A stretch of DNA of 64,000 nt from Owenia fusiformis (taxonomy: Eukaryota > Annelida > Polychaeta > Sabellida > Oweniidae). The position numbers and the translations under genes are program-made. Positions 29,001-53,000 of the stretch are shown in pieces (within the stretch, counting starts at the first letter, position 1; every line of letters begins with the position of its first letter). The stretch is taken from positions 19,019,754 through 19,083,753 of the forward strand of contig CAIIXF020000011.1 in assembly GCA_903813345.2 (NCBI GenBank), given 5' to 3'. The notes below the pieces were generated by a model. The model was not told where the DNA came from. It saw only the letters and a program-made list of their open reading frames with translations, and did no database searches.

Positions 29001-32000
29001 CGCTTCCAGACCTCGGGATAGGACATTTAGAGCCTGTTCTAAGCTGTTATTCTGTGAGCTACAATAGATCAGAAATACATTGTGATATATGGCAGTATGT
29101 TTGCAAATATTGACCAAAATCACAATGGTCAAAAACGCTTAATCCAAATAATCTTCAAGCACAGTGAATAATAATTAGCAAACTTTTACCATAAATGAAT
29201 TGATCTCTTTCCTAAATTGAAATGTTTCCATGAGCAGCCACTAAAATTAAACATTCAATATTTTTATGTAGTTTTAAAATGTGGCAATGACAGTAAATCA
29301 AACTAACTTTGAATCAGACAGTTTCTTATAGGCAAGTTTCAGCCATAGGGTTACATTCAGAGGCATTTCTAATACAGCAGCCTCCAGATCTTGAACACTT
29401 GAGTCATCCGTTACAAAATACCGCACGTCTTGATCATTGAGGATATCATCAAGGTCCATGGGTATGGCCTGTGAGCTGGTTGTGAAGTCTGCAGGGGTCT
29501 TGGGCTTAAAGGTGTCTTGTTTTCGTTGCCTCTGGGGCAACCGCCAACTTCTAGCTTCAGGGAAGGTCCTATGAGGGTGGACTAAAGAAAAATACACCAG
29601 GCATTTATTGAGATTGTATTTAGATTATCTGTAAAAAGGTTTATCACAACAGAAATATATCTCAATACAAGAAATCAACACTAAATCATTTTACTCAAGC
29701 TCTTCATCATTTTATAGCATAGAAAGTAATCTTAGTTATCATACTCAAAATTGGTGAAATAAATGTATGACATAAGACCTAAGATATAAGATTCATAACA
29801 GGTCTAAAGCAAAGGGTAAAATTGGTATTTTCAAGTATTTGGCACACATCTTAGCTTCATACATTCAATCTGAAAATTGAATTATTTCATAAAATGACTC
29901 ACCATGTCCCGACTTATCATTTACTTTGCTGACCATCAAGAGGCACATCTCATCTGGGGTCATTGTCTTGCTGTTTTGCTTTAAGTAGCCTTTCACATAC
30001 TCATCTGTATCAATACACAAACATTTTTATTATTAAGAATATTTTATTCGTCTATATATTACATTACTTACATTATATTGATACAGTTTAATGAAACGGA
30101 TTGGACAAAAGGCTTTCGCCTCTTCTAAGTCCTCTCCTTAAGGACCTCTCCTTTTGACACAAACATTTTAATAGAACACAGTCCAAAATGCCCACATTAT
30201 TATTTCCCTAAAAATTATCTATATCAAGAAACATTCCCAACAACAATAGCCTTATAACACTACTTGCCATTTGTTACAGATGCCAACAATCAACCACTGA
30301 CCGCCATCCACAAAAAAGTTGGTGACATAAAAGTATCCCTTCCTCCAAACTTAAACTCTATTTAAAACTTTACAAAACAAAACTAAGTATAATTCAGCAG
30401 TTTTCCTGTACAGATGGAGGGTTGCTGTTGTATTTTGACCCTGTGGATGCATGTTAAGCTTAGTTCACACCAACGGCGCTTTGGTAGCGCTTTAAAGCAC
30501 CATGCAGAGCCGCTTTGCACGACGCTTTAAAGCACCATCAATGCGCCGTTGGTGTGAACTTAGCTTTAGATGTAGATGACATCTATCATCATAATCTTAC
30601 CAATTTTTTCATCATATTGCTGTGTATCAGTTGCATCGGTAATTCTGGCAACACTTGGGCAATAAGCCACTATGTCTTTGAGCACCTGTTCAGTATTGTA
30701 TGTGTAGTCCCTAGCATGTTGCCAAGGACATGTGTCATCATTGCACGAGCCATTGAGATCAAAACGACACAACCTTATATGTGGCTCAATGCCATGGCTG
30801 TATCGACTAGAACTTATACTGCACTTTTCCTTTGTACGAAAATACACACTGAATCTGTGGAATAAAAAGAAACATACATGTATTGGAGTTATTCAGAAAG
30901 CAAATATGCATCAAATAAAATGTCCAAGTAAACATTTAAGAACAGGGAATATTTTTTATTGTAGCAAGTCTTTACTGGATACTGGAATTTCTAAAGAAGA
31001 ATTGAAAATTAGCTCCCTTTTTAAGTCAGTATTGGTACAAGGCAATCATCTAGACAAAATGTAACAACCTACAAATATATAATAACAGACCTGTTACATC
31101 AAGCCAATGCTAAATGCCAGTCACCATAAAACTGAAGTGATGAATAAGAAGTTCATCGAACATCTAAAAAATGGTGAAAATCATTTCAACATATATAATG
31201 TATAATAGTACACAAACCTGTAAGATTTGAAGTTGAGCAATGGACTCTTGTAAGTAGACAAGGGGCCAATGTGTCCTTTCTCCTGTGTACCCAATCCTCC
31301 CTTTTGTTTGCCAAGCCTCAGCTCAAGATCTTGCTTCTCAGGGTAAAACATACTACAGAGATCATACATGTATTTATTGCTGGGTGTCTGAGTTTGGGGG
31401 CTCAGTGAAGCACTTTCCTGATACAATTTCTTCACAGTTTCCAGCTTCTTTCCAGTAGGTAACTTTATATTGAGCACATTTTTGAGTGTTTTACTCTTGT
31501 TGAGCATTGGGCCTTCATTCAATGTTGCCTGTGATTGGTCGACATTAACATTCATTTGGTCCGTATCTTTAGTTTTCTCCACATCGGGTTGGTTATTATT
31601 TCTTGCCATATTGTTATTTTCCCTGGGTGTAATATTACCTTTGGGGTCAAATAATTTTTGTTGCTCCCCTTCCATTTTGTTAATTCTCATATAGGCTGTA
31701 TCAGAGTTCAAGTTAGGTTTACTGCTTGGGTTCACCTCAATAAATGAACGCCTACGAGATGTTGTATCATTAACATTGTTAATATCTGTTATGTTAAGGT
31801 TTTCCAGTGTAATCTTGTCACCTTCTAACATAACATGTTCTGGTGCATTAGTCTTGTTCTTCTCACAATGACTACTCAACCTCCTTCTTTTTTCTTTAAT
31901 AGCCATAATTTTAGCACCGGGGGAAGTTACAGTAGGTCTTTTAGGGGGTTTTAGTTTGGTATTTTCAGATTGTTTCAATTTGCGAAGACGTTCAGCCAGT

Positions 32001-35000
32001 TGTTTTTCTAAAGCTAACAGTTTTCGTTTCTCGACTGCAAGTTCTGCTTGAGTCTTTCTGTGCACTGTCAAGCTGACTGAATCCATCTTTGGTTTCTTAA
32101 TTGACTGAAAGAAATTTATGTGCATCTAATTAAATATGAGAATCGTATATGATTTTTGAGATATAACTCTTGTATCTTTTTCATTAATGAAAATGCAAAA
32201 AATCTCAATCAATTTAAGAAAATGTCACTGACAATTAAAGGACTAAATCCAACGACATAATAGGAGACAATCTCCACTATTGCAACTACTGTATCATTAC
32301 CTCTACTGGTACAGATCTAGAGACCGAATAGCAAAATGTAAATCAATACTGTACCTGCATTGACTGTGTTTTGATTGGTCGTTTAGAAGGCATTGCAAGC
32401 TTAGGTTTGAAATCATCACCATATGCTTTCCTGCCTGCATCAAGTAGTTTCATATCAAGCTTCTGTAGCGTCTCTGTTCTCTCCTTTGTAGTGTTCTGTG
32501 ATGCATTTGCCTGGATTCACATAATATATATGTATACAACAATCTACTTTTTAATCCATGTAACGAAGATAATGTTTTTTATGGTTTATGTCGCTTCAAA
32601 GGTTAATAGGGCATTATTGTATGAGGCGTCCAATCAAAATTTTTGATGACACCTTTCAAAAAAGATTTTGATGAAGCAATGTTGGGGAGCAGCTAAAAAG
32701 AGTGCTAAAAACGAAAAATGCCTCTTACCAAAATCCCATTTCTGGTAAATTGGGATGACAACGAGATCATTATATTTTGACACATGATAGCCTTACAATG
32801 GAAAATATTTAATAAAATTCACATACCCTTTCTACAAGCTTCTCCATCTGGTCTTTGCGTACATTATAAATCTTCTCCGCTGCAGCTAGTTGCTCACGTA
32901 ATTTATTCACATTCTTCTCAGCAGATGTCAGCAGCTCTTGTTGCCGAGACATCTGATTCTGGAGGTTGATTTGTGACGCTTTAGCTTGTGAAGCTTCTTC
33001 CCTAAATGTATATGAAATATTTAGCTAAAATACTTCAAATAGAGATCACATTTTGTGTAGGATTCTAGAAATATTTCATCAATCATTTTCACCACATTTG
33101 ATGTCTTGCTCTGTCTAATGCAATTAATTCTTTTAAATAAATAAATGATAAAAAATAACCAACAGTTCATACTTCTTTCAGTTTAATATACAATTTTCTC
33201 AGAAGTACCCCTTTTCCAGTTTCTATGACAACTGCTTTATCACGATATTTCATCAGATATCATTCATTTTTTCCAGAACAGTTGCAGATATACTTAATTC
33301 CTAATGATAGCGAGAGATATAAAAATAAATTTTCAAACCATTCAAGTGTATGGAAGTGACTCTTAGCATAGTTATCACATATCAGTGTTCTTAAGCAAAA
33401 CAAAGACTTTCTTTTCACCACCAAATATTTTCAATGGATTGATTAGAATCTTTCATTTGACAACAAAGACAGCTCAAATGGGCTATCAATAAATTGTCAA
33501 AAATTTTATAAAATTATCAAAAATAATATTCTTAAATATGCACAGTGCCTCTTTATAGATGGTCATCATACGCTTCTCAAAAGAAAAAAATACCTGAGTT
33601 TGAAGATCTTGGCCTCAATAGCCTTGACTCTTGATTCTCTCTCAACCTGTTCAGTAGTTTTCTTAGGGCCAGGGGAGACTGATTTTGTGACCTTGTTCCC
33701 TGGTGGTTTCTTTATATCCAGGCCCACCTGAACAGTGTTTTCTTTTCCTTCCATTGCCTTAGCAGCCATACGTTTCATGATCTGTTCACGCAGCTTGCGA
33801 TATTCATCCTGCATTGTCATAGACATTGCTCTCATAGCATCTGGGGTTGGGTGAATTTTTGCTTGCTCGATTTTCTGTCTAGCTTTGGGTTGAGGTTTTG
33901 GTGTGACTGGAGTTTGTTTATTGTCGACAGATTGCCGCATATCTTTGAGGAAAGCACCTAGGTTGCTAAGGAAGGCTTGTTGCTGGGACGATTTTGGTTT
34001 TTCATCATCAGAGGAATCATCATCCAGATTGATCACAACAGGCTCATGTTGAGGAATCTGAAAATATATTCAGGACCATATTAGCAAGAGACAATATTGT
34101 TCCTCTTAGGTTTGATATGTTTAACTATTATTCACTGTCATATTTCCCACTCTCTGATTGGTCTATGTCCCAGTCCTATGATGACTAGTAATTCCTACAT
34201 CATCATCAAGTTCAGTTAGAGGCATTCTAAGTGAGGCCGTTTTCTTTAAATTTCTCCAATACATGTGTCGTGGGTGTTTGAACGTTTTCTTGTGATTGTT
34301 TAGAATCATCACTTTAGAAGTTTGCATGGCAAAACATTTGGAATCCAGATTCAACCTAGTTTAGCCGAAATCATTGGTTTATCAAAAACAAAAGAATTTT
34401 GGCCACCATCTTGAATGATACTAACTGCAGTTAGAATCATCCAGGTGTGGAACAGTTTTCATGTGAATAGGAAATAAGAAGCCATATTCCCTATGAATTA
34501 ATCCAGTGTTACCTGAACCATACACCCTGGCTAGCATTTCACCCAGTGCACTTTTATACCAAACAAAATATTTCCACAAATCAATGTTTCCAAATAAATA
34601 TGATAAAAATTAAATTCAGTTTCTTTGCTTTATTTATAGATAAATAATGTCTTAATGAAATATATTGAAATGAGAAGATGTAATTTAATAGCTCAGATGC
34701 AAAACTTCTTATTGTTGGTATTTCAGTAATTGTAAAGCTGCCCTAGGGCCCATATACAATTACAACCAGAAAATGGAAATAAAATATAGACTTAGCTAGA
34801 TAATGTTGGTGTATTGCCCTTCAATTTAAAGAAACTAACAATCAGAAATATTCGGAAAATATTGATTAATATATTCTTCATTAATTAGCTTTATTGCAGT
34901 AATTATAACATATTGAAACACCTGTCTTAAAAGTTAGATACATATGATATCTCATTTGATTTTGATATGTTCAGAAATTGAGATGTATTAGTTTAAAAAT

Positions 35001-38000
35001 TGTTATTCAATCATATAGGATTTAAGTAATGCAAAAGTATTGCATTCAAAGGCAATCAGTAATATTCACTTATAACAGCTGAATTTTGATCTACATAATT
35101 TTCGGGACATGCTCACTTTGTGAAATGTTAAAATGTGTTGTCCAGGGTTTTATCAGCAAAAGACAATTAATTTAATTTAGAACAAAAGGCTGCACGATGC
35201 CCCAGAGATATAGTTGTCACTGTCATAGCCGTAGGGACCAAGGGTTTGATGGGTTCGGACGAACCCCCAGTCAGGGTTTCCCCAAAAATATATTTGTCGA
35301 AAACCAGAAACATTAAATTCAATTTATATGACAAGTAAATAAATAAAAACATAATAAAGTTGTACACTTCTTTCCAAAAGTTTGGCAACCTTTGGCACGG
35401 GTTGGGGTTGTCTAATTTTGGGAAGACCCGGATCATCATGACATTATGCAAAGAAATAACAATAATTTCGCACAACTTAAAAGCTGCTTCATATCCGGTG
35501 AAATAAACCAACTGTATTTGTTCAATTTGTTCAATCAATTTAACATAATTTATTTTTATTTTAACATAAAAACAACTACTTATTGGTTTAATACTGATGA
35601 AAACACATTTTCTTTCAAATCTGTGCGCCTTCGTTTTGTTTTATTTCAAACAAAAAAATTCTTGCCCGGAGCTGATTAGTCCCCAAGAGCAAATATCAAA
35701 TAATAGAAACATTTTGAAATTAGTTATTATAAAAACCACACATGTATGAATCATTTATAAACACAAGCATTTGAATGGGTATAGCATTTATTATGCATCA
35801 CTTCGATTTCTTTTATATTAAAACTTTGATGGAATTAAAATGCGAAATTATTTATATTATACGATTACAGTTAAGACAAACACGAGCTTCAGTGTCTATA
35901 ATCAGCCTTTAAAAAACATTCCGATGTGACTGCTATTTACGTCATTAAAGATTCAAAATTCGGTTTAAGTGATGTCATATTTGAAATCTACATGTAAAAG
36001 TACATCTAGAAATATGGTTTCCAAAATTGTTGATCAACAATGTAATATTTTTGAAAATGTGACTTCTAGATCGGGTTGATCCCCCATAGACCCCATGTTA
36101 CAAAATCACAAAAAGTAAAATCTTTTATTGTATTGGACAGATAACATTTTCCTTTCCTGGACATATTTTGATTTGCATAACTATTACATATGTAAGGGTT
36201 ATATGAAAATTGAACCACTAAAACAGATGTAATTTAAGTTAAAGGGGACTTTCTACTATACCCGCCATGCTATCTGACCCGAACGAGCCACCTGGTGGTG
36301 AAACTTTGTTGTAAGGCATTGCAATTTGAAAAAGGTTTAATTTTAGAGCCTACGGAGTACAATAGATTTCGTGTTATTTCATCATCTGTCACTTCTATCG
36401 TCAGAGAGTATTCACGTAGCCATAAAGACTTTTTGTGCGCCATGATTAAATAAATATTTCATTCTTCGAAAATATTTGCTAATAATTATTCTTCAATTCA
36501 GTAACTAAATGTAAGTTCATAAGGTCATTATGAATGAACATTCCTTAAATTAAAGCTTAAAATGAAATAACAAATAAAATCTTTTGATTTGGAGTTTTTT
36601 AGAAAAATCATAATCTTTGTATTAAATTTTGGGAATTGCATGTTTCAGAATTTGACATATCTTTGTGTGAACTCTAAAGTCTATCTCAATAAATTAGAAA
36701 TGAGGGTTTCTCCCTAAAGTAGCTCATTTTAAAAAGATGCATATGTTCCTTAAAGATGTGTTAGGATTTGCACTTAAACTAAGCTCTATGTTAACTCTTA
36801 ATTTGAATTTCATTAAACAAATGTAATATTAAAAACATGATCTTGCCTATTCACTTTTTGATGTACAGTACATGTATTCAGTTTTCATTTCAAATAATAA
36901 GCTTATTCATAGGACTCTGAATGACATTCTGGTGATTAAGAATTGAATTAATCTTGCATCAAGATCCTGGACCCCCTCTCGACATATCTCTTTAATAATC
37001 TGCAATCAAGAAATTGATAGACATAATTTAATCAGATAAATGGCTTTCTAGTTGTTAAGATTGGTGATAAAGTATTTGTTGGAACCTTTATTTAATATTT
37101 GTGTAGGGCTTGATATATCTGATCTATATAGGGATTTAGCAAGGGATTATTGGGTCAAATGTATTTTCCTCGCTAATGCCTGGGTCACATTTGCCGCGAT
37201 TCATCTGCCGCCGATTGAGTATTTTGTTCTAAACTGAAATATGTGTTGCAATCAAATGTTTCGAAAGTCATTCACCATGATCTAAGCAAAACATTATTAA
37301 AGCTCTTTTTTAGACTTTCAATCAATTTAAATCAATCAAGTTTGAATGCTATCTCGCATATATTGCATACATGTATTTGCAGATGTGGTGATTGTATCTT
37401 ACATTTTCACATAACAAGAGCTGTCATTTGACATGTAATCTTGAGTTTTCAATATTTTGATACATTTGTTTATTATTTTGCGATCATGAAAGCTTTAATC
37501 GGGGATAAAGATTTTGACAAACTCCTTTTGGTTATCACTCTATAGGTGGTTATAGCATTGAACATTGAATTTACACCCCATTTTGGGCTTTTAGATAAAA
37601 TGCATACACTATATCACAAGTACAAGTTTAAATGGTAACCACTCATTCTGATACTCAGACCATCTCTGCTATGCACAAGAATAGAAGGACACTGAGAGAA
37701 AGCCGTGATATCTCACGATGGTAACCACTGGCTTATAGAATGACCACCTCAAATCAGCAACACATATCCCTGTAGACTCAACAGGATACCAGAATTAAAT
37801 TTCTAATGTTTAATTATATCAAAATATTCCTACTTACAAAAGTGCTAACTGTCACTGAATATAAAGCGACAAAAGTTCAACTAGTGAGATACACAAAAAT
37901 ACTTCATTTAGACACCAACCAAAACTTGCACGCAATCAATGATTAACATAAGTATCAACTAAGGTATCTCTTGTTGTAATATGATTAAAATATAACGGTT

Positions 38001-41000
38001 CTAAACTAATTGAATAATATATAGATATATGGTTTCACACTTGCAAAATCCAACTTTTCAGTTTAATTTTAATGCAAAAATGACAATATAAAATCGAAGA
38101 TCTGGCTGTAACTTACAGAAGCTAAAAAAATAAGATGTTGAGATTAATTCAACTTCATGGAAGAGTTAGAGAGAAATCAGAGATATAGCATCAATCTACA
38201 GATAAATATGATAAAGATAATCTGTAGAGGATTAGTATCACAACAAGAATCTTTCAGTACTGCATTCCCAGGTTATGCACTGAATGGCAACTTATGTCTA
38301 TTAGAATCTTTCAGTACTGCATTCCCAGGTTATGCACTGAATGGCAACTTATGTCGCTGACAAAGATATAAACCCTAGACTCAGAGTTTGTCCGATTCTA
38401 ATGTAATAAGTGAATTATGACAACTCAAAAGAATGATAAGTTGTTTTTATTCGAAAAACTGCTACGTTAAAATTATGAACGTTAGACCTCTGGTTTGTTA
38501 CATCATATAAACATTTCTATGTAAAAAACTCAGAATGTGAACACCTGCCAGTCTGAACACTTGTATATGTATATATATTACTACAATTCAGCGTATATCT
38601 ATACATGTTTGGGTTATTATCATTTCAACAAAAGCGAAGCCGTCGATTCCCTCAGAGCGATCATCGTGTTCTCATACACTTTCTGTATAGATACTGTCCT
38701 TCTATGATGAGTGGTGGAGTAATGGAGTGTTAGTTATTCCACCATGGGGAGAATTCAGGTTGTTTCAGCAAGTCAGTCTTAATACTATGCATTTTTTCAA
38801 GACACGCTTCATAGGACACATCTATAATGCTGAGGTAGCCAAGGGTAAAACCTGATTCCCCTTTCGGTTCAACTGGAGAATCGACTTCGAATCCAAACCG
38901 ACTAATGTCAGAATAATCGGCAAGTTTGTCAATGTTGATAAAATCACCGACTTTCCCGGAGCCAAATGTTGACAAATATGCAAATAAACCAAATTGGTTC
39001 GGTTTCAGTGTAGGTTGTTCAGGCGTTATTCCTCTGTTTACACTGAGGTAGGCCTCGGTAATATCTCCCTTGTTCAAAATCTCATCATAGATCTTGAACA
39101 TGAAGTGGAAGGCCCTGCCGTTTATCTCCATCAGCTTAAAAGTTCCATCCCTGAAGACGAACAATTCAACATCAACGAACTCATTGTCAAATCCAAACTT
39201 TTGGAGATTTTCAACTAGTGCGTGAAACACTTTCCATATCTCTTCTTGGGTGTACCTTGAGAGAGCTGATGGGAAGCCACATCCTTGAAAACATTGAGGG
39301 CGGTGGGGCCAGTAGATGTTGTCGCCGATAGCCCATGGGACAATCTTACCGTGTGAAACTAGACCGTCCACACCATGTATTGAGACCGGCTCCTGAATAA
39401 TGTCTATGTATTGTTCAAGCATGACCAGGCCGTCCAAGGCTTGAGGATATTTTTTTAAGTCTAGAAATTGCTCAATGAGGCCCTTGAATGGACTGAGTAT
39501 ACCTTTCACATTATTTTTTATCAGCTTCATCTGATAACGTAAACTATCGTCCTCTCGAGCCACGCCAACTAAACAGGAGGCTGTTCCCATAGCAGGTTTT
39601 ACGAACACAGGGAAGCTCTTGTTCGCACTAAGAGGCGTATGATTTCTTTTCGCAAAATCAAATCTCGTGACATCAGTACAATCATAGGCGACATTAACAC
39701 TCGCCTTACTACCCACTAATTGGCGGGTGTAGTATTTGTTGAGGCAGACGTAAGAGCCCTCAAACGATGGGCCGGTAAGATGCGGATATGCTTCCACCAG
39801 TGCTGCCTGGACGATACCACCCAAATCAGCAATACCGATTACACATCCTATGGATTCCCTATCAATGATGACACAGCAGTTTGAATATATAATACCCAAA
39901 TCCAAAGGGGTTTCCACAGCATAGAAATTGGAGTAGAAATAAAATTCATCATTTTCAAAACATCCTCTTTGTTTTTTTGTTTTCACATGCTTCTTTAATA
40001 CGAGATCCAGCCCTTTAATTGGAGCAACTACCAATATATTCCGCGATCTATCTCTGATGTTAGTCATGTTTGGTACAAAAAGTAATACATGTATGTTCGA
40101 TTCCTTGTACAGGGTGGTCAAAAAATGGAAACCCTAATTCCATTTTCCTCATATCTATGTCATTTTAAATAATAACTCCCTGATATTTTAAACTTTTGTA
40201 CATCATTCAATTTGCTACCAGCCTATTTTATTTCAAGACCATCAGATTGATAGTCACAGTGTTTCAGTACTTTAAAGAACATGCCCAGTGGCCACTGTTG
40301 TGTTGTGGGGAAGCCTGTATTCATCATCTAAAATGTCCTTACCTGTGGGGAGATAGAGTATATGAGAATGACCTCAGGACAATTGCAAACCTCAAAAGTG
40401 AGGTCATTCGTGTCATCTAAGCCATACCTGCTGAGGAATGCATTCGGGTCATTGATAACTGTGCTGTTTTGCCTACAGCGCCATGGTGGCCAAATCTGAA
40501 GCATGTTATTCATAGTACTGTAAAATTGTGACTATCAGTCTGATGGTCATGAAATATGGTAGACTACAAATGTGTGAAATATTAGGGAGTAATATATTAA
40601 CGTGACAAAGATATAAGGAAATGCAGGGTTTCCATTTTTTGACCACCCTGTATATTATTTAGTTGTGCTTTATTAAAACAGCTAAGGCGTCTAACCTTAA
40701 AAAAGGTCATCATAGTACCCCGGACAGGTTGAATGATGCAGTCAGGTTTTACTCTATATTTGCAATGGAACAACCATTCTTATTGAAATTTTTAAGATTT
40801 ATTCTAGAGACAATTTCCAACATGGAAAATAAACATTTTTTCAAAATTTCCAATTTTATGATTTTGACAGACAACCCAGTGGCGAAAAAGGTGTGTTATC
40901 AGAGGACACATGACTCAGAGTGACAAGTTTTCTATTGGCCTAATACACTATAATAATATCACTGAATATGACAAAAATGAATAACAATAATCAGCCATAA

Positions 41001-44000
41001 TTAATATGGCATCAAATACAACTAAATCTAGAAAAACTGATGAATATGTGTTGTGTGTTTCATTCCGTGAACAATCCTTACAAGTACAGGGTGGTCCAAA
41101 AAATGGGACACTCGGAATTCGAAAATAGATATTGATTTTCTTGATGAAAACATGTCATGTTATATACCAGTGGATGAGGAATCTTTTCATTTAATTTGGC
41201 ATATTATAAGTTCAAATTTATGATAATGTCTGTCAACTAGCGTCCATAATATAAATGACGTCATTTTCGTTTTAAAACGGGTTTTCCAAAACTAGCAAAA
41301 ACCAAGTTTTATTGTCAACATTATTTACATAAAGAGATGTTCAATATGTCCGCCATTTTGATCAATTGTTGCCCTCAATTTTGGCCTAAATTGGTCAATA
41401 GCATGATTGATATCCTGCTAAAACAATAAATTTCACTTCTCAATAATCCTGTCCTTAAGGGACTGAAACCAAGAGATCTTAAGGATTTATGGTATACCAA
41501 TTCTGTCAGTCCTCCCTATATAGGTGGTAGTCGCAGACGTTGGGTAATCGGGTGATCTGGGCGAGGCAGTGATAAAGGGGGATGAATCTAAGCATATTTT
41601 CCTTAAAACATTTGACACTCTTGTGAGATACATTGCTTGGAACCCCATCTTGTTGGAAAATGTAATGATTTGAAAATAGCTCATATCAGGATGGTCCAAA
41701 AACAACATAATTGAACATCCCATGTCAACGTCTGCGACTACAGCGTATTTTGAGAACTAACAGAATTACTTTACTATGAACCCCTTACATCTACTCAGTC
41801 CCTTAAGGACAGAATTATTGAGAAGTCGAATACACCGTCTCAACAGCATGTCAGTGATGCATTTGACCAGTTTAGGCCAAAATTGAGGGCTATAATTGAT
41901 CAAAATGGTAGACATATTGAGCGTCTGTTTATGTAAATCAAGTTGCAACTAAGAGCTCCTCATTTTCAATCAGATGTTGTTTTATCATGACATCATAGAA
42001 CACTTTTGCTAATGAATTCTAGGAATATGATACCATTATCTGTGACATCAATTACATATTGCCCCATCAACAAATAAACAAACAAGTGAACTATATGTCA
42101 CCTATTCTTCCAAGTAATTAGGTAATTTTTTGTATCTTGTTTCAGTCCAGTTTCGCTACATCTTGGTCAAAGATAAAAACCTAGTTTTGTTGAGATTAAA
42201 AATGGTCAATTTTTACATTTTAATCAATTAAAGTTACCACTGCGTTTGTGAATAACAACGGAGAACATTTTTGATATTAAAAAATGGTGTTACCCCTCAA
42301 AATCCCTTTCTCGAAAATCGTATTCTTCTCCAAATCCCTTTCGCGCAAATCATATTCATCTCCCGAGAATTTCTGCCAAACAACACATGCCATTTCGTTC
42401 AGTTTGGTCAGTATAGCCACCTTGCTAATGCAAAAGAAGATGTGCAGTAGACGATCGTAATACCCGGAATGTGCCTCGTTCACAATTTCAATATATACCG
42501 TATACTGTTCTATCAACCAATGAAATTACAGGGGGTGCCAAGTTTGAATATTTTATGTGGGCACCCCACAGCACATATATAGTGATGGTAAGTAAAAACA
42601 ATATATTCTTATAGTGTAACATATTTTCTATAGCTTGGTGAATTTCATCCTCCTAAGCAGGTGTCCAGAATCCGTACCTCCTTCTTCCCCCGTTATAACC
42701 AATTAGGACGTGCCCGATTTAACTGAATCACATGATCTTTAATATGCGCAATGACTTATACATGATTTTTGTCGCAGTGTTGCAACATCCAATCAGATTG
42801 TGAGCTCTTAATCGGGGAAATGGTAACTGCTTATCGCAGGGGGTAAAAGAAAGAATATGTTCTGGATTTTTTTTGGAGAATGGTGAATTTTGGTCACGAA
42901 ACGTTCTGAAATGGGGTCTTCTCATTGGATAATCAGGCCACCATTGCGCTATAGAGCTGGGTGACACTGATAAGCAGAAAATACAATTGCCACTTTAAGT
43001 ACATTTACCCGTTTTTCTGTTTGTATTAGCCCTTATTCACATCCAACCCAAACGCTCTTACATGCACGACGGAGCGTTTCATTCATGCGGAAACGCAGCG
43101 GAGCGAAATAAAATGGCGGCTAATGAAGATTCAACTATGATCGTAAGTATTGTTTCACTCGTTTCTCTTACATACCATACGTTCAATAGCTGTAGGGACC
43201 GGGGATTCCATGGGTTCGAATGAACCCCCGGTCAGGGTTTCCCCAAAAATATTTGCTGAAAAATTCATTGCAACAACCAGAAACATTCACTTAATTTATA
43301 TGACCATAATAAAGTTACACTTCTCTCCAAAAGTTTGGCAACCTTAGGCACAGGGAAGGAATGTCTAATTTTGGGAAGACCCCTGTTCATCATTACATTA
43401 TGCAAAGAAATAATCACGCACAATTTATTTTCTGACTTAAAAGCTGCTTCATCTCCGGTGAAATAAACCAACTGTCTAAATACTAATAACAAATCTATGC
43501 GCCTCTGTTTTGTTTTATTTCAAACAAAAAATTCTTGCCTGGAGCAATTAATTATTAAATAATTTTGAAACATTTAGAAATGAGTTATTATATAAAGCAT
43601 ACATGTATGTATCATTTATTAACACAAGAATTATAATCGAATGGGTATAGTATTTATTATCCATCACTTCGATTTCTTATATTTTTGAGAATAAAATTGT
43701 CCAAAAATGTAAAAATACAATTTTCTGAAATTGTCTGGATTTCTTTCATACATATTATAAATATGTAAGTATGTAAAATCCAACATTTTATCAATAATCT
43801 TGTCAAAGGAGTGGTATCGATATAGAGAACTTTTTGAACACACGTTTCTCTTAATCAGTCATAAAAAAAATCTGAAAATTTTTTAAAATCAACCAAACAT
43901 CCTTTGTATAAGTATATAATATTGAGAGGTCTAGAAACATGTTGTATACTGTATAACATGTATTAAATCTGGGTGCTTTATTTTCTTAATCGGATTAAAA

Positions 44001-47000
44001 TTGTTATTGCCGAATAAAAGTTTGCCGACCAGACACCCCTAATGTAAAGCCAAATAAAATATTGCTGACCTGACATCCCTTATATAATTTTGATTTACAA
44101 CTGATCTACAATTTTAATCACCTCCATTTAATCGACTCAGAAAACCTGACATCCCTAATATATAGATTATGAGTGATAGTTTGAGTAATTCCCACATTCG
44201 ATAGACTCAGAATTAATACCAGGCCCGTAGCCAGAATTTTCCAAGGGGGGGTTCGTTTTTCTAAAAAATTCTAGGGGGGGTTCACTTTGGCAAATATGGC
44301 CAAAAATCACTCAAAAATTAGTCAGAATGGTGAAAAATTGCATGATTTTGTCCGAACCCCCCGAACCCCCCCTGGCTACGGGCCTGAATACCAAGATTAA
44401 AAATTGTTAATACCAGGATTAAAAACTTTTAATACTGGGATTTCCAAAGCACTTGGATCCGATTTTATTTATGAGCTTTGTTAAGTTGATACTCGTTAGA
44501 AAACTACAATAAGTTGACACTCATTAGACAACTACCATATTAAAGCTCATTAAGATCGATCTTCAATATCTTAATTACATGTATATTTCCGAATTTTATG
44601 TTGCCGTTTCTGTTTTACATTCGGCAATCGGCAACTTTATATCCCGGCAATATTTCATGTTATACAGTATGCTATTTTGTTCCAACAAGGCTCGGAAAGA
44701 CATTTTATTTCATTCTCAAGAATTGGTAGAAAGGAGCAAAAACAATTGCACAAAAAAAAATGTTAACAAATAAAGTTATATAAAATATTTCTAAATAATT
44801 TTTGCATTAAATTGTTGTCAATCAGTCAACATTACACAAAATACCGTGTTTTTTTTACAGAATGTTTTCAATGATTGGTTTAAGAGAAAAACATTGTTGA
44901 ATTCATTTCTACATATCGATACCGATCCTTTGATAAACTGACTGCTTATTAGGTGAATTATAATGTTCCATGTAGTGAACTCTCCATCTCCAAAAAATCA
45001 TAGAAATTCCTTCAAAATTGAGATAGTTTTTCCCAAACTAAGGAGGTGACGTTTCTGAGGCCACCTTGTACAATTGTTCATGTTACTTAGAAATTTGTCA
45101 GCCCCATAGATCTGATTCTAAGTACAGATTATTTTTTATTTTCAATTCAAAGAAAGAACAAATATGTATTTTGAGCACTTTGTATTCTTTGTTGCAAGGC
45201 ATTGGAATTTAAAAAAGGTTTAATTTAAGAGTCTACGGAGCACAATGGATATCTCAAGTACCAATTGAGAGTATTCGTGTAGCCATAAAGACTTTTATAT
45301 GTGGGCCATGATTAAATAAATATTATATTCTTCGAAAATATTTGCTATTAAATACTCCACTATTCAGTAACTAACTCTAAGTTTATAAGGTCATTATGGA
45401 CACTCCTCTATTATAAAATGAAATACCAAATAAAAATCTTTTGATTTGTAATCTTTTCAAATCAGCATCTTACCTCAGTATTGAAGTGTGGGAATCGCAT
45501 GTTTCAGAATTTGACATATTGAACTCTGAAGTCTCAATGAATAAGAATGAGGATTTCTCCCTAAAATATCTGGCTTTAAAAAATATGTTCCTTAAAGATA
45601 TGTTGGAATTTGCCCTTAAATGTACAGTAGAACCTGTATATCTGAACACCTGGCTAATCCGAACACCTTCCAATTTGAACACTTTTTTTCAATCCCATTT
45701 TTTCCTCCTATTGACTCCCATGTTAAAAAAAACTTGAAATCTGAACACCTCCTAATTTGAACAGTGAACAACCAGATTTGAAAAAGTGACCTGTCTAATC
45801 TGAACATTTTTATCAGAAATCAACTGTCTGGACATTTCAATTAAAGCCACATATTTTTTTTCTGTATACTGTTCATATCATTCAAATAAGAATCCAAACA
45901 TAGGTAGGCTTAAACCCTGTCTCTATACTCCCTGATATTTGGTACATGTGTACATCATTCAATCTCCCCCAGCCTACAATATTTCATGAGTACAATATTG
46001 CGCTTTTGGCAAACCTGCATCTGTCGTCCAAAATGTTTTACCTGACTTCTACCTTTGGGATATGCCAAAGGTAAAGTGTACAGAAAGAACCTCAGGACAA
46101 TTACAGACCTCAAAAAGGAGATCATAATTTTCATTCAGGCCATACAATGTACCTACTGAGGATTGCAGTTGGGTTGGGTCATAGACAACTTGTGCAGGTT
46201 TACCTAAGCATGATGATGGCTGAACCTGTGTTCAATCAAGAAACATGGTAGGCTGATAGGAAATTGAATGTTCAAGTGTGTAAAATATCAGGGAGTAATT
46301 CTTTAAAATGACAAAGATATGAGGAAAATACAGGGTTGCCATTTTTTGACCACCCTGTATGAAAAAAAATGTGAGGATCCCCAATGAAGGGGGAGATTAG
46401 TTGATAACAAAAAACATAGAACCTCGGGTCACCGAATCCTGGCTACGCCACTGATGTCGTCACCAATTAATCAACTTCCAGTTCAGAATTAGCCCACTTA
46501 AAGGTCATTTGCACCCATTTAGATAAGTTTATTCAAAAGTGCAAAAAATGTTGAATTTGACACCCATTTGAGAAAAACTCTTGAATATAGTGATTAAGGC
46601 AAGTAACATCCATCTATAAATTAAAGCACTTTTCATAGTGAATATTTGATAATAATAACATTCATTCGCTGGGGAAAAGTGCATACATCTTTGTGTCCCT
46701 CAATTTACCAAATTGTATTGATATGACAACTTAGATAGTTGAGTTGTGTCAATTTTGTTAACTTCCAAGTGGGAGGGGGAACAGTCATTTGATGATACTT
46801 AAGTACTTGTAAAGCTGCCCTAAAGCCCATATACAATTACCACTAAAATTAGAGTCTAGGCCTATCTAGACTAGTTAAACAACTTACTTTGAACCATTTC
46901 CCAAATTAACTATAGTAAACACAACAAATGTTGACAATACAATGTTGAATATATTTTTCATTGTCTAGCTTCACTGAAGAAATTATTTCATTTTGAAACA

Positions 47001-50000
47001 GCTGTTTTCATAGTTAGATACATATGATATTTCATTTGATTTTGATATATTCAGAAATTGAGATATATTCATTTAAAAATTGTTATTCAATAAAATAACA
47101 TTTTAGTAAGCCATTGATGTTGTATTGGATAATAGGTAATATTTGCTAATAACAGTTTGATCTTTCATAATTATTCAACAAAGTTGATCATAACATACTC
47201 ATGTTGAAAGTTATTCATGTTTTTATAAGTAAAAGGCAATTACCCAGATGCAAGTAGGTAGTTATTTTCACGGTATCAAGACGTTTCACCCCCTGGACGT
47301 TTCACCCCTAGACTGTTCACCCCTTAGACGTTTCACCCCCTGGACATTTCACCCCCTAGACACTTCACCCCCTAGACGTTTCACCCCCTGGACGTTTCAC
47401 CTCCTGGACGTTTCACCCCCTAGACATTTCACCCCTAGACTTTTCATCCCTTAGACGTTTCACCCCTAGACCTTTCACCCCTTAGACATTTCACCCCCTA
47501 GACATTTCACCCCCTAGACATTTCACCCCATATACAGTCTGTGTATTGTACAATGTGATGGGTTGGGTTATTAGTGAATTTTGACTTAATTTACATGAGT
47601 ACATGGGTGTATACGGATTTCTTTTCCAAGTAACATTGACTGGAAAGGGTCATAGTGTATAAAACCACAACAATATTGGTACAAATAAGTTTAAAAAAAG
47701 TTTGGACTTTGCACTGATTAAAGATGCTAGTCTCTAATTGCCTAAATAATCCCTTCCCTTGTTATCAATTGCATTATTAAAAGCAACAAACCGATTCATT
47801 ATTATTTTTTAGATTTAGAAAATTAATCCAATTGTTTTTGATGTGTGTACAAATGTATTTATAATGATATACAAGAACACAAATGTGTACAAAATGTCCC
47901 CACCAATGGGTGATCCCATGAAATAGTTATCCTGAAAATGAGTAGAAAAGACTTTACCAACACAATTTGAGGACGGAAAATCCAAAATGGCCACCTTAAA
48001 ATTTACCCAGAATGCCAAAAATTGAGTCAGTTCTAGATTTTCAAACTAAGAACCACCCCTGAAAATTGTTAATCGATCTGTGACACAGTTAACTAGAAAA
48101 TATGTAAACAAGACTTTACAGACAAGATTTAAGGATGGAAAATCCAAAATGGCTGCCTTGCCATTTACCCAGAATGTCAAAAAACTAATCTGTTCCTAGA
48201 TTCTCATACTAAGAATCATCCCTGAAAATATGACATCGATCTACCAAATGGTTCACCTGAAAACGCGTAGACAAGACTTTACAGACAAGATTTTAGGACA
48301 GAAAATCCAAAATGGCTGCCATGACATTTATACAGAATGCCAAAAAACTAATCAGATGTAGATTTTCACACTAAGAATCATCCCTGAAAATTTGAAATTG
48401 ATCTGCCAAACGGTTCACCTAAAAACGCGTAGACAAGACTTTACAGGCAAGATTTTAAGACGGAAAATCCAAAATGGCTGCCTTGACATTTATCCAGAAT
48501 GCCAAAAAACTAATCAGATCTAGATTTTCATACTAAGAATCATCCCTAAAAATTTGAAATTGATCTACAGAACGGTTCACCTGGAAATGCATAGACAAGA
48601 CTTTACAGACAAGATTTTAGGACAGAAAATCCAAAATGGCTGCCTTGACATTTGCCCAGAATGCCAAAAAACTAATCAGTTCTACATTTTCATACTAAGA
48701 ATCATCTCTGAAAATTTGAAATTGATCTACCAAACGGTTCACCTGAAAACGCGTAGACAAGACTTTACAGACAAGATTTTAGGACGGAAAATCCAAAATG
48801 GCTGCCTTGACATTTACCCAGAATGCCAAAAAACAAATCAGATCTAGATTTTTATACTAAGAATCATCCCTGAAAATTTGAAATTGATCCACCAAACGGT
48901 TCACCTGAAAACACGTAGACAAGACTTCACAGACAAGATTTTAGGACGGAAAAATCCAAAATGGCCGACAATAAAAAAGTGATTATGTGTTTTTGCTGAT
49001 TTCTTCTTACAAAATTATCACATATAACTACTGTTAACAATTACATAGGCTTTTACAACAAAGTACATCTGAAATTATTTATAAAGCTACTAAATAGTTA
49101 AAGTATGAAAACTCAAAAACACCATTGAATATGATACAAAGTATTATCGTGCACTCACTTTTCTTAAGACATTCAAAATGGCTGACATGACTGAGCTAAC
49201 AGGTCCAAAACCTAATCAGATCTAGAATGAAGTGAGCTGAACAAGATGTTAAAGTTTTAAAAGCAACTGTGAAGCCGTTTTTCTTAAAGTTTGCAGACAA
49301 GGATTTTAGCATTTGACTTCAAAATGGCCGACAGGAAGTAGGTATCGAGTTAAAATTTTTTCATCCACATCTGTATGCACTCATAAGTTATCCCTGAAAA
49401 TTTGAAGGTGATATCTGTAGCTGTTTTGGAGAAAACTCCCGGACGTACGGACAGACGGACGGACGGACAGACGGACGGACGGACGGACGTACGGACGGAC
49501 AGACGGACGCGCCTAGGCCGACAATATGGCCCCACACTATGTGGTGGGGACATAAAAAGCATTCATTTTATGGTAAACAATTAGATATGGCATAAATTAG
49601 AAGTGAAATTAATAAGAATTGTATAAGATTTTTGGTTGCAGATTTCCTGATGATCATTTTATCAATTAGGCTAATTGTAATTTATGTTATGTAATTTAGG
49701 TTATTTGTGAGCGAGGATTTGCTCCCTGAATTAACAGTGGAAGGCATTTGAGTATTTCTATGACATATTTGAGCAAAGATTTACTTTGGTAGGCATTTAA
49801 GTAATTCTATACTAAAAATGTGAGCAAGGATTTACAGTGGCAGGCATTTCAATTCAATTCAATTTACCATACACTCATTTCATCAGGGAATGCATAATTA
49901 GAAAAGGGAAAAATGGAGGGACTTTAAAGATACTGAATTTGGATGACCAAAATGAACTGAAACCAATGGATAGCATGAGATTTTTCAATGGAGAAATAAC

Positions 50001-53000
50001 ATGGGGAACACTTGTCTTAAAGCAATTAAGTTTTCCTTTCAAGAACTATTTGATACATCAAAATAAAGAATAGTAATGCATTAAACATTGTAAAAAATGA
50101 TTGCATTTCTGGTGAAAATGGGGTCAACATCTTTGAAAAAGTCTGTTGATGGGTTGATTACTACTTTAATATCTCCGAGTTTGTTTCTGTCTCCATTGTC
50201 AGAAAATAGTCATAATCCAAGATATAACCTTTGGTTTTGAAAATTGTTTATCAACTTTGAAAATTTAACTTTTTTGAAAATGTGACTTCTAGTTCGGGTT
50301 GATTCCCCATAGACCCCATGTTACAAAATCACAAAAAGTGAAATATCTCTTCTTGTATTGGACAGATAACATTTTCTTTTACTGTATATATTTTAATTTG
50401 CATAACAATTAAATGCATAAGGGTTATATGAAAATTGAACCACTTTAATTGAAATTAAAGGGAACTTTCTACTATACCCGCCATGTTATCTGACCAGAAC
50501 GAGCCACCTGGTGGTGAAACTGGTAACTACCTACTCACCTCTGCATTACAGTACTTGTTATTTGATTATGCTATTTGGAACACTTGGTAATTAAATTGTG
50601 ATTTTAATTAATCAAACCAAAGCTAAACCCTATTACATAAAATCATCTAACTTAAATTCACTTAAGTTGCTGAGCAAAATGTGTCAATAGGAAATATGTT
50701 CTATAATATATGCCATTTACTTGAATGAAATATGTAGGAGTAAAAAATTGAAATGTCTAGGGGGTGAAATATGTCTAAGGGGTGAAACGTCTAAGAGATG
50801 AAATGTCTAGGGGGTGAAATGTCTAGGGGTGAAACGTCTAGGGAGTGAAGTGTCCAGGGGGTGAAATGTCTAAGGGATGAAATGTCTAGGGGTGAAACAT
50901 CCAGGGGAAGAAATGTCCAGGGGGTGAAGTGTCTAAGGGGTGAAATGTCCAGGGGGTGAAACGTCTAAGGGGTGAACAGTCTAGGGGTGAAACGTCCAGG
51001 GGGTGAAATGTCTAGAAAGCTATTTTCACCACTAGGTGGCTAATTCGGGTAGATAACATGGTAGGGTATTCGAAAGTTTAATTAAACTTTAATATTTATC
51101 AGTTTCAATGGTTCAATTTTTATATTACCCTTATGTATCTGTAATAGTTATACAAATTAAAATAAGTCCAGTAAAAGAAAATACTTTCTGTCTAATATAA
51201 TAAATATATATGTGATTTTATAACATGCAGTCTATGCGGAATCTTCCTGACCTACAGTGCTCACCATAAATAAACAGCATCTTGATTTTCTATCACCATT
51301 CCCAGACCATGGTGATTTGAGACTTTATACTTTCCAATAACGTCTAGATACACATACTTTAGTATTTTATATTTTACATTTAGCGTCCTCTAACTAATGT
51401 ATGATCACTTGAAAATTCTCTTCTTTTTAACATTGGAAATCCTTACTTCAGCAAATCCAGGTGTCATGAGCACTGTATAAGTCACATTTCTAAAGAAAAT
51501 CTAATTTTCAAAGTTAGTAAACACTTTTTAAAACCACATTTCTATTTTCTAGATGCCATTTTACATGTAGATTTCAAATATGATATCACATTGAGTGAAG
51601 TTTGAATTTCTAATGCCATAAATCAAGATTATTTCTACTTGCGTCTAGTCTATTTACGTTATCTAATTAAATTAATCTAAAACAAAATGCCGCATTGCAT
51701 ATACTTAGATTTTGAAAATAGGCTTGCAATTCAGACTAAGCCCACTTTAAGCCATTTGCACCCTCTGGTTGGAAGTGTAATGGGTAAAACTGCAAAAGTG
51801 CATTTTTCTATTTAAATAAATTATGTCTATTTGTAAGAGATATCATGATAATTGAGGTCACAAACAGTGTTATCTTAGTTTCTCAACGCTTTGAATTGCA
51901 AGTCAACATTTTAGGCTGAAATTAGGTTTAAACATTTCTCTTAAGTTTCCTCACAATATTAGCAATTAGCTATTTATTAAAAAATTTCACCAATTTGAGA
52001 TATAAGCTCAAAAACTGAAAAGTGGTCAAATTTCAACTTCCTTAAAATTAAACAAAGCCCTTTTCAAACATCATTTTCAAAGTTGACTGGAGTTCATATA
52101 TGACTTTACACTTAAGATCAGACATTTTGTGATTTTCAAATTGTCAAAAACGTCAACAAGGGCCTCCGTAAGATTGCTTGCAATGTTAATGTCTAGTTTA
52201 TATCAGAAAAAATTGTTAGAGAAATCTTATCAATTTGAAATGAAAAAAATACATTGAATAATATGATAGTTGAGATGCATCAACTTCTTCATTTTCAAGT
52301 AGAAAGGAGAAAATTATTTTGTTAATATTTGAGTAATTGTAAAGCTGCCCTTAGGCCCATATACAATCACCACCAGAAATTCTAGGCAACATAATCATAA
52401 CAGATGTTGGTAATACATGATTGTTGAATATATTTTTTATTATCTGGCTTTTTGATGTAACTGTACCCCTTCGAAACAGCTGTCTCCTAGGTAGCTACGT
52501 ATAATATCTTGATTGATTTTGATATGTTTTAAAATTCAGCTGTAGGAGATTAAAAATTGTTATTCAATGAAAAAGCATTTTAAAAAGAAAATCATTATTT
52601 GTGTTGGTCAATAACCTATTATATTTGCTACTTATAATATTTGCTATTTTGATTTTTTATAAATTTTAGTACAAAGGTCAGTAATCTTGAAATGTATTTT
52701 CTGGATTATTATTATTAGGAAAAGGCAATTGAATCTTAGATGAACAAAATGCCACATATGTTGATACCTTCACAGGAGCATGTGTTCACTGGCAGATCAA
52801 GAATATAACAAGGGGGTGTGCCCATATTTCAAATCAGAAAATAAATAATTTTGGGTCACTAAATTCAAAAATTTGGCCTATTGTTTTAAAAATTTGAGGC
52901 CCATTTTTTGATAATTTGGCCCCAAAAGACCAAAACAAAGGCAAAGTAATGCCCACTATTCACGTGATATGACCCACCTATAAATTGTATGCCTGTTTTA

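What the first reader, a model, noticed from the sequence alone, without database searches (positions are those of the whole stretch)
38730..40067. Complete intronless ATP-grasp gene nested inside ZFC3H1 intron 9
Seen: a 445-codon uninterrupted ORF with ordered ATP-grasp motifs (VKPAMG lysine and loop, EQYID hinge, MEINGR metal site), on the host strand, inside a phase-0 intron far larger than its neighbours. The host gene is cut into 28 exons, yet this one has none. Inference: a retrocopied or horizontally acquired ligase maintained in an intron. The substrate is unknown and could be a small-molecule or peptide-forming reaction not described in this lineage.
Basis: partly seen in the sequence, partly recalled or inferred. 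Interest (0 to 1): 0.75.

Follow-up and report, generated by a model that had tools for sequence, protein, structure and literature searches.

The report
Bacterial-type ligase family in an animal
Inside a very large intron of an animal gene sits an intact, intron-free gene for an enzyme whose full-length relatives were found here only in a few bacteria; it is one of five dispersed copies, three of them intact, so the nesting itself is incidental while the apparent bacterial ancestry of the enzyme is the interesting part.

Summary
Observation confirmed. A 445-aa ORF lies on the minus strand (38730-40067), the host's strand, inside a 19,035-bp phase-0 GT-AG intron of the ZFC3H1-like gene. It keeps the ATP-grasp active-site residues, and its predicted fold is closest to L-amino acid ligases (Z 30). 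It is not a lone insert: five intronless copies were found on three chromosomes (three intact, two damaged), in two subfamilies about 63% identical; the window copy is 95% identical to one on C6, with a synonymous excess between them. No multi-exon parent was found, so 'retrocopy' is unsupported. Full-length relatives were found only in bacteria (the only collections searchable): marine cyanobacteria (~31%), a marine gammaproteobacterial symbiont (28%) and Binatia (~25%). The animal clade groups with the marine set inside bacterial diversity (100/99; two alternatives rejected, AU p about 2e-4). I read it as an old acquisition of a bacterial ATP-dependent amino-acid ligase, later duplicated. 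The bacterial genes sit in probable small-molecule clusters, in Binatia beside EgtC, EgtB and EgtD. Other eukaryotes could not be searched, so date and uniqueness of the transfer are open, as are substrate and expression.

The parts
38730..40067 (-). Intact 445-codon ORF, ATP-grasp L-amino-acid-ligase-like protein
38530..38729 (-). 3' flank shared in pieces with the C6 copies; about 30 bases near its far end also occur at three other places in the genome (dispersed repeat fragment)
40068..40107 (-). Proximal 5' flank shared with the C6 copies, between ATG and the inserted element
40108..40652 (.). 545-bp element with perfect 28-bp terminal inverted repeats beginning TACAGGG, ending 40 bp upstream of the ATG; absent from the intact C6 copy
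40653..40714 (-). Distal 5' flank shared with the intact C6 copy (81% identity), cut off from the gene by the element
34058..53092 (-). Host intron, phase 0, GT..AG, 19,035 bp (splice sites read by eye)
53093..53233 (-). Host exon before the intron (5' boundary approximate)
33594..34057 (-). Host exon after the intron
30716..30772 (-). zf-C3H1 domain that identifies the host gene as ZFC3H1-like

Best explanation
It is a functional-looking, intronless member of a small animal gene family of bacterial ancestry. Shown: five copies, three intact; ATP-grasp fold (predicted) and active-site residues; grouping with a bacterial clade; a synonymous excess between the two closest copies. Inferred: an ancestor of this animal (perhaps much older than the species) acquired the gene from a bacterium; it split into two subfamilies, and a copy of subfamily A came to lie in the ZFC3H1 intron by a duplication whose mechanism left no readable trace. 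Inferred mechanism: as in L-amino acid ligases, ATP phosphorylates a carboxylate to an acyl phosphate (K157 holding phosphate, E301/E314/N316 holding magnesium, R318 stabilising; roles recalled), and an amine attacks to form an amide, giving a dipeptide-like or amino-acid-derived small molecule. The gene is expected to have its own transcription unit on the host strand, not to be part of ZFC3H1 mRNA; that was not tested.
For: ORF and chance control. Five loci in the own genome: window; C6:24.63M (95%, no stop); C12:9.54M (64%, no stop); C11:4.20M (broken frame, two matches, one stop counted); C6:23.85M (fragment with internal deletion, one stop counted). Control: the Trichodesmium protein as query finds the same five loci, best E 5.7e-56. 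Bacterial relatives: 20 loci confirmed among 96 pattern-matching stretches in one genome for each of 84,980 species; best Okeania hirsuta 31% over residues 48-442, E 4e-59. Tree: the three intact copies with Okeania, Trichodesmium and Thiobius at 100/99, again 100/99 after dropping four rows; grouping animals with the Binatia set, or leaving animals outside the marine and Binatia bacteria, is rejected (p-AU 0.00018 and 0.00015; groups named after the first tree was seen). Model pLDDT 79.7, pTM 0.84; best chain 3vot L-amino acid ligase, Z 30.1, 375 residues, rmsd 3.1, next Z 27.1; Foldseek ranks 1-3 are L-amino acid ligases. Selection: dN/dS 0.30 (NG86) or 0.39 (YN00) for window versus C6 copy; 19 of 36 single-change codons synonymous against 21.4% expected, p 3.4e-5, five multi-change codons set aside.
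Against: No eukaryote other than the own genome could be searched, so a widespread eukaryotic family with vertical descent is not excluded. The animal stem branch is long (1.8-2.1 changes per site) and the tree tool warns that long branches meet. Only 31% identity: no recent donor. None of the three co-clustered bacterial genes searched (HD, methyltransferase, DUF2785) was found in the genome (none of these had a positive control, and the proteins are shorter). Intronlessness is not specific to transfer: a SUMF1-like gene in this genome is also one open frame. The window copy may be under weaker constraint: of 22 differences from the C6 copy, 11 are window-derived, 7 C6-derived, 4 unpolarised, and H321 replaces a proline kept in the other animal and marine bacterial rows. 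The 5' flanks of the subfamily-A copies are only 69-81% identical, more diverged than the synonymous sites (dS 0.08); gene conversion or misaligned flanks could be behind this, and it is unexplained. No transcript data. The window protein alone stays below the Pfam cut-off (PF13535 15.6 of 27 bits).
Confidence: 0.6

Rival explanations
1. An old eukaryotic gene, vertically inherited and lost in most lineages, happens to be intronless here; the bacterial proteins are merely the only relatives in the collections searched.
For: Only prokaryote, phage, plasmid and viral collections were searchable. Identity to bacteria is only about 31%.
Against: With the root on distant bacterial rows, bacteria lie on both sides of the animal clade; all five copies, including two subfamilies whose synonymous distance could not be estimated, lack introns; no multi-exon relative was found in the own genome.
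Confidence: 0.25
2. A retrocopy: reverse-transcribed mRNA of a multi-exon animal gene reinserted in the intron.
For: Intronless; the shared unit is short, about 180 bp of 5' and 200 bp of 3' flank; a SUMF1-like gene in this genome is also intronless.
Against: No multi-exon parent found (and with a distant query; short diverged exons could be missed); no poly-A tract or target-site duplication seen by eye at the ends. Copy-to-copy retroposition of an already intronless gene is not excluded.
Confidence: 0.12
3. Mobile-element cargo: the gene is carried and spread by a transposon.
For: Five dispersed copies on three chromosomes; an element with perfect terminal inverted repeats lies 40 bp upstream; a 30-base piece of the 3' flank is repeated elsewhere.
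Against: The element appears to be an insertion into the unit: the C6 copy lacks it while both sides are shared. The 5' flank probe matches only the three subfamily-A loci. The other places with the 30-base repeat are not among the gene's five loci.
Confidence: 0.08
4. A decaying duplicate without function of its own.
For: Two of five copies are damaged; inserted element 40 bp from the ATG; more derived changes in the window copy, 11 against 7.
Against: Full frame and active-site residues kept; synonymous excess between window and C6 copy, although this may stem mostly from the C6 lineage.
Confidence: 0.2

Closest known systems
ATP-grasp gene of marine cyanobacteria (Okeania hirsuta L015:5908-7185, Trichodesmium L030:5914-7194) and Ca. 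Thiobius zoothamnicola (L017:5968-7260)
   Same: Full length, 28-31% identity, same active-site residues, C-terminal EFSPW shared with the cyanobacteria, clade support 100/99
   Different: Bacterial genes lie in a cluster with an HD protein, a methyltransferase and DUF2785, and in the cyanobacteria also a TmpA/BBOX-like dioxygenase; searches of the animal genome for the HD, methyltransferase and DUF2785 proteins found nothing
Binatia-type ATP-grasp beside egtC, egtB and egtD (models tested on L023; by eye in L018, L024, L025, L026, L028 and, without a displayed EgtC, L019)
   Same: About 25% identity over most of the length, same active-site residues
   Different: Separate clade; sits in an ergothioneine-type cluster
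L-amino acid ligase BL00235, Bacillus licheniformis (PDB 3vot)
   Same: Best structural match, Z 30.1 over 375 residues
   Different: 18% identity; activity and substrate pocket not tested
D-alanine-D-alanine ligase (TIGR01205)
   Same: Partial match over residues 84-182, 29.8 bits
   Different: Far below the family cut-off of 245.65 bits

Membership tests
ATP-grasp superfamily | ATP-grasp fold | tested here: met
   Model pLDDT 79.7; 805 of 999 chains at Z 8 or more; the 50 entries shown are ATP-grasp enzymes by recall of their names
ATP-grasp superfamily | Phosphate-binding Lys, Mg-binding Glu/Glu/Asn, catalytic Arg (roles recalled) | tested here: met
   K157, E301, E314, N316, R318 the same in every row that covers them, out of 22
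ATP-grasp superfamily | Pfam PF13535 above its curated cut-off (a diagnostic, not a definition) | tested here: not met
   Window 15.6 bits against 27; C6 copy 17.5 and C12 copy 16.7; the Trichodesmium relative passes with 48.4
L-amino acid ligase | Closest overall fold | tested here: met
   3vot Z 30.1, next row 27.1; a shared fold shows no function
L-amino acid ligase | ATP-dependent dipeptide formation from free amino acids | not testable with these tools
   needs enzyme assay
D-alanine-D-alanine ligase | Family model above cut-off | tested here: not met
   TIGR01205 29.8 bits against 245.65
EgtA-type glutamate-cysteine ligase | Match to a glutamate-cysteine ligase model | tested here: not met
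   No such model among the Pfam or NCBIfam matches of the window protein, nor among the Pfam matches of its Binatia relative
Bacteria-to-animal horizontal transfer | Protein nested among bacterial proteins | tested here: met
   with long-branch caution and no other eukaryote in the tree
Bacteria-to-animal horizontal transfer | Absent from other eukaryotes, or present only in a limited group | not testable with these tools
   no eukaryote collection beyond the own genome
Retrocopy | Multi-exon parent gene | tested here: not met
   own-genome searches with two queries find only the five intronless loci; short diverged exons could be missed
Retrocopy | Poly-A tail and target-site duplication | tested here: inconclusive
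   none seen by eye at the ends of the shared unit, but the ends are not sharply defined and old copies may have lost them

The most novel reading that the evidence does not exclude
An animal lineage domesticated a rare marine-bacterial ligase from a small-molecule biosynthetic cluster and expanded it into two subfamilies that now make an amino-acid-derived metabolite (dipeptide, betaine amide or thiol precursor) not known from animals.
Probability: 0.3. Interest if true: 0.7.

Novelty: new member of a known kind. Interest (0 to 1): 0.45.

Why it matters
Bacterial genes kept and multiplied in animal genomes are a known but debated phenomenon. This one is concrete: a complete enzyme frame with an intact active site, signs of selection, a bacterial clade to compare with, and bacterial gene clusters that hint at chemistry. 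It would let one test whether a marine invertebrate makes an unexpected peptide or thiol metabolite. The Binatia neighbourhood separately suggests an ATP-grasp enzyme in the place of EgtA in some ergothioneine clusters.

Tried and rejected
Viral origin: no relative in viral contigs with two alignments (none of 237 pattern matches, none of 59), none in phages, only weak PHROGs matches. First genome-contig scan with animal rows alone found none among 150 pattern matches; adding the Paraburkholderia row gave 20 loci. Plasmids: 10 records, best E 1e-5 at 25%. Sequence search of solved structures with the window protein: best D-alanine-D-alanine ligase at E 0.057.

More bacterial members: with profile A4 at E <= 1e-50, 2 of 386 cyanobacterial genomes matched, one being the Okeania already in the query (which also holds a distant paralogue) and the other only a distant 760-aa relative; 1 of 369 gammaproteobacterial genomes matched, again the Thiobius already in the query (both are draws from larger groups, and at most four candidates per genome were scored in the rows listed). 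So no new close member was found. Other phyla were not searched this way.

Transfer of the whole bacterial cluster: HD protein and methyltransferase queries found nothing in the animal genome. They are 50% identical between Okeania and Thiobius, against 40% for the ATP-grasp proteins, so they do not look faster-evolving than the ATP-grasp query that worked, but they are shorter and had no positive control of their own. DUF2785 found nothing and rang in no control. The dioxygenases, decarboxylase, dehydrogenases and SDR were not searched.

EgtB in the animal: best match 93.5 bits, below the cut-off of 360; read out, it is a SUMF1-like protein (name from recall). Two weaker matches on C1 were not followed.

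Helitron or retrotransposon ends around the unit: looked for by eye; the shared 30-base tail is a fragment of a dispersed repeat. Literature: nine paper searches were answered (one search found no paper); only listings were seen, except passages of PMC2922099, PMC11371463 and PMC11993508. I saw no title or abstract start in these listings that describes this family in an animal; that is no proof of absence.

Species: nine contigs looked at among C1-C12 are 35-62 Mb and C13 is 0.66 Mb; 498 Mb total. This resembles the annelid Owenia fusiformis from recall; not tested.

Full report
What is there. On the minus strand, 38730-40067 encodes 445 residues without a stop, far beyond the 157-codon maximum elsewhere in the intron and the 192-codon maximum of 100 simulations of 64 kb. 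Its GC (42.2%) exceeds that of the intron (33.3%) but lies within the 37.8-47.3% of three host exon stretches. The host gene runs on the same strand; the one zf-C3H1 match found in the genome lies 3' of the intron at window 30716-30772. The intron, read by eye, runs from GT at 53092 to AG at 34058, phase 0, 19,035 bp, against about 215 and 592 bp for its neighbours.

It is a family. Searching the 498-Mb genome with the protein gives six matches at five loci: the window; C6:24,626,819 (95% identity, intact); C12:9,543,780 (64%, intact); C11:4,203,651-4,204,960 (broken frame, one stop counted); and C6:23,848,504 (residues 1-172 matched, one stop counted; the DNA shows an internal deletion). Subfamily A is the window and the two C6 loci; subfamily B is C12 and C11:4.2M (94% DNA identity to each other over 1,553 columns). 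A and B are about 63% identical in protein; neither method gave an estimate of their synonymous distance, which I take as saturation. All are intronless. Shared DNA around subfamily A is short, about 180 bp 5' and 200 bp 3', broken by local insertions. The 5' flank probe hits only the three A loci, and at just 69% and 81% identity for the other two, more diverged than the synonymous sites of the two intact copies; I cannot explain this, and gene conversion of the coding part or misaligned flanks are possible.

An inverted-repeat element (40108-40652, perfect 28-bp ends) lies 40 bp upstream of the ATG. The intact C6 copy has both sides without the element, so it was most likely inserted after the two copies split. 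The ends of the unit, read by eye, show no poly-A tract and no target-site duplication, but they are not sharply defined. The duplication mechanism is therefore unknown.

Selection. Window versus C6 copy: dN 0.024, dS 0.080, ratio 0.30 by NG86; 0.39 by YN00. Of 36 codons with a single change 19 are synonymous, where 21.4% would be expected; p 3.4e-5; five codons with several changes were set aside. This shows constraint in at least one of the two lineages. Using the C12 copy as outgroup, 11 of 22 amino-acid differences are window-derived, 7 C6-derived, 4 unpolarised; H321 in the window replaces a proline present in the other animal and marine bacterial rows. The window copy may thus be the less constrained of the two.

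What the protein is. Pfam and NCBIfam give only sub-cut-off matches to ATP-grasp and D-Ala-D-Ala ligase models, among others. The model built from an alignment of 15 rows (window plus 14 bacterial) has pLDDT 79.7 and pTM 0.84. Foldseek ranks L-amino acid ligases 1 to 3; the structural aligner puts 3vot first at Z 30.1 over 375 residues, phosphoribosylaminoimidazole-carboxylase-type enzymes next at 27.1. Lys157, Glu218, Glu301, Glu314, Asn316 and Arg318 are the same in every row that covers them, out of 22. ATP-dependent amide formation is thus the inferred reaction; the substrates are unknown.

Relatives. The second genome-contig scan returned 20 loci confirmed among 96 pattern matches: Okeania hirsuta, another Okeania and Trichodesmium (31-33%), Ca. 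Thiobius zoothamnicola (28%), Binatia, deltaproteobacterial and similar genomes (24-26%), and more distant Chloroflexi, Paraburkholderia, Variovorax, Planctomycetota and gammaproteobacterial rows. The scan is limited to its two peptide patterns. As a control, the Trichodesmium protein used as query finds the same five loci in the animal genome, best E 5.7e-56. Searches of 386 cyanobacterial and 369 gammaproteobacterial genomes brought no new close member, so the family looks rare in those samples.

Tree. With 22 rows the three intact animal proteins join the Okeania, Trichodesmium and Thiobius rows at 100/99, with Binatia and a distant cyanobacterial paralogue outside. With 18 rows (four dropped: L016, L032, L033, L034) the same group has 100/99, and two alternatives are rejected, p-AU 0.00018 and 0.00015. 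Cautions: the groups tested were named after the first tree; the root is placed on distant bacterial rows that I chose; the animal stem is 1.8-2.1 changes per site; the tool warns of long branches; and no other eukaryote is in the tree.

Bacterial context. In Okeania (L015, model matches) the gene lies among an Orn/DAP-type decarboxylase, an HD protein with weak matches to PhnZ/TmpB-type oxygenases, a TmpA/gamma-butyrobetaine-dioxygenase-like protein (201.7 bits, cut-off 400), an alanine dehydrogenase/PNT-type protein, a PhyH protein, an SDR and a methyltransferase. The Trichodesmium locus (L030) shows most of the same genes by eye, without PhyH, and a DUF2785 protein tested by model. Thiobius has the HD protein, methyltransferase and DUF2785 relative near its ATP-grasp gene (50, 50 and 42% identity). 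In Binatia (L023) the ATP-grasp gene is followed by EgtC, EgtB and EgtD, each above its NCBIfam cut-off, and an asparaginase-like gene below cut-off; similar ORFs are seen by eye in L018, L024, L025, L026 and L028, and partly in L019. EgtA makes gamma-glutamylcysteine for EgtB, and EgtC cleaves off the glutamate (passages of PMC11993508). I noticed no EgtA-like gene in the L023 stretch, but not every ORF there was annotated; so an ATP-grasp replacement for EgtA is a guess. It suggests, without showing, that the wider family links amino acids to amines or thiols.

Reading. The most economical account is an old acquisition from bacteria by an ancestor of this animal, followed by duplication. Against over-reading: eukaryotes could not be searched; a SUMF1-like gene in the same genome is intronless too, so lack of introns alone is weak evidence; none of the three bacterial neighbours searched was found. 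I put the transfer at about 0.6, a vertically inherited patchy eukaryotic gene at about 0.25.

Noticed in passing
L023:5905-10224 (by eye also L018, L024, L025, L026, L028, partly L019): Binatia-type ATP-grasp gene directly before egtC, egtB and egtD (model matches tested on L023 only), a possible stand-in for EgtA in ergothioneine synthesis.
   Followed up: partly
L015, L030, L017: Conserved set ATP-grasp, HD protein (weakly PhnZ/TmpB-like), methyltransferase and DUF2785 shared by marine cyanobacteria and a gammaproteobacterial ciliate symbiont (40-50% identity); product unknown.
   Followed up: partly
L037:574-2871 (minus) and L036: Cyanobacterial 760-765-aa proteins with a distant ATP-grasp half and a C-terminal extension of roughly 290 residues, in L037 near an ORF that looks like a polyketide acyltransferase (recalled).
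   Followed up: no
L051:453-1652 (G000 C3:19,185,352-19,186,551): SUMF1-like (formylglycine-generating-enzyme type, name recalled) 399-aa open frame without introns in the same genome.
   Followed up: partly
window 40108-40652: 545-bp element with perfect 28-bp terminal inverted repeats (TACAGGGTGG...), perhaps Tc1/mariner-type (recalled), 40 bp upstream of the ORF.
   Followed up: yes
L007:4825-4999 against L010 and window 40653-40714: 5' flanks of the subfamily-A copies are only 69-81% identical although the coding parts are 94-96% identical; unexplained.
   Followed up: no
L028: Record titled Klebsiella pneumoniae carries a Binatia-type gene that groups with a deltaproteobacterial row in the tree; the title may be a mis-binned metagenome assembly.
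   Followed up: no
window 47919-48965: Tandem array with a unit of about 162 bp in the same intron, about 87% identity between copies one unit apart.
   Followed up: no
L009:7630-8726: Tandem array with a unit of about 88 bp near the damaged subfamily-B copy.
   Followed up: no
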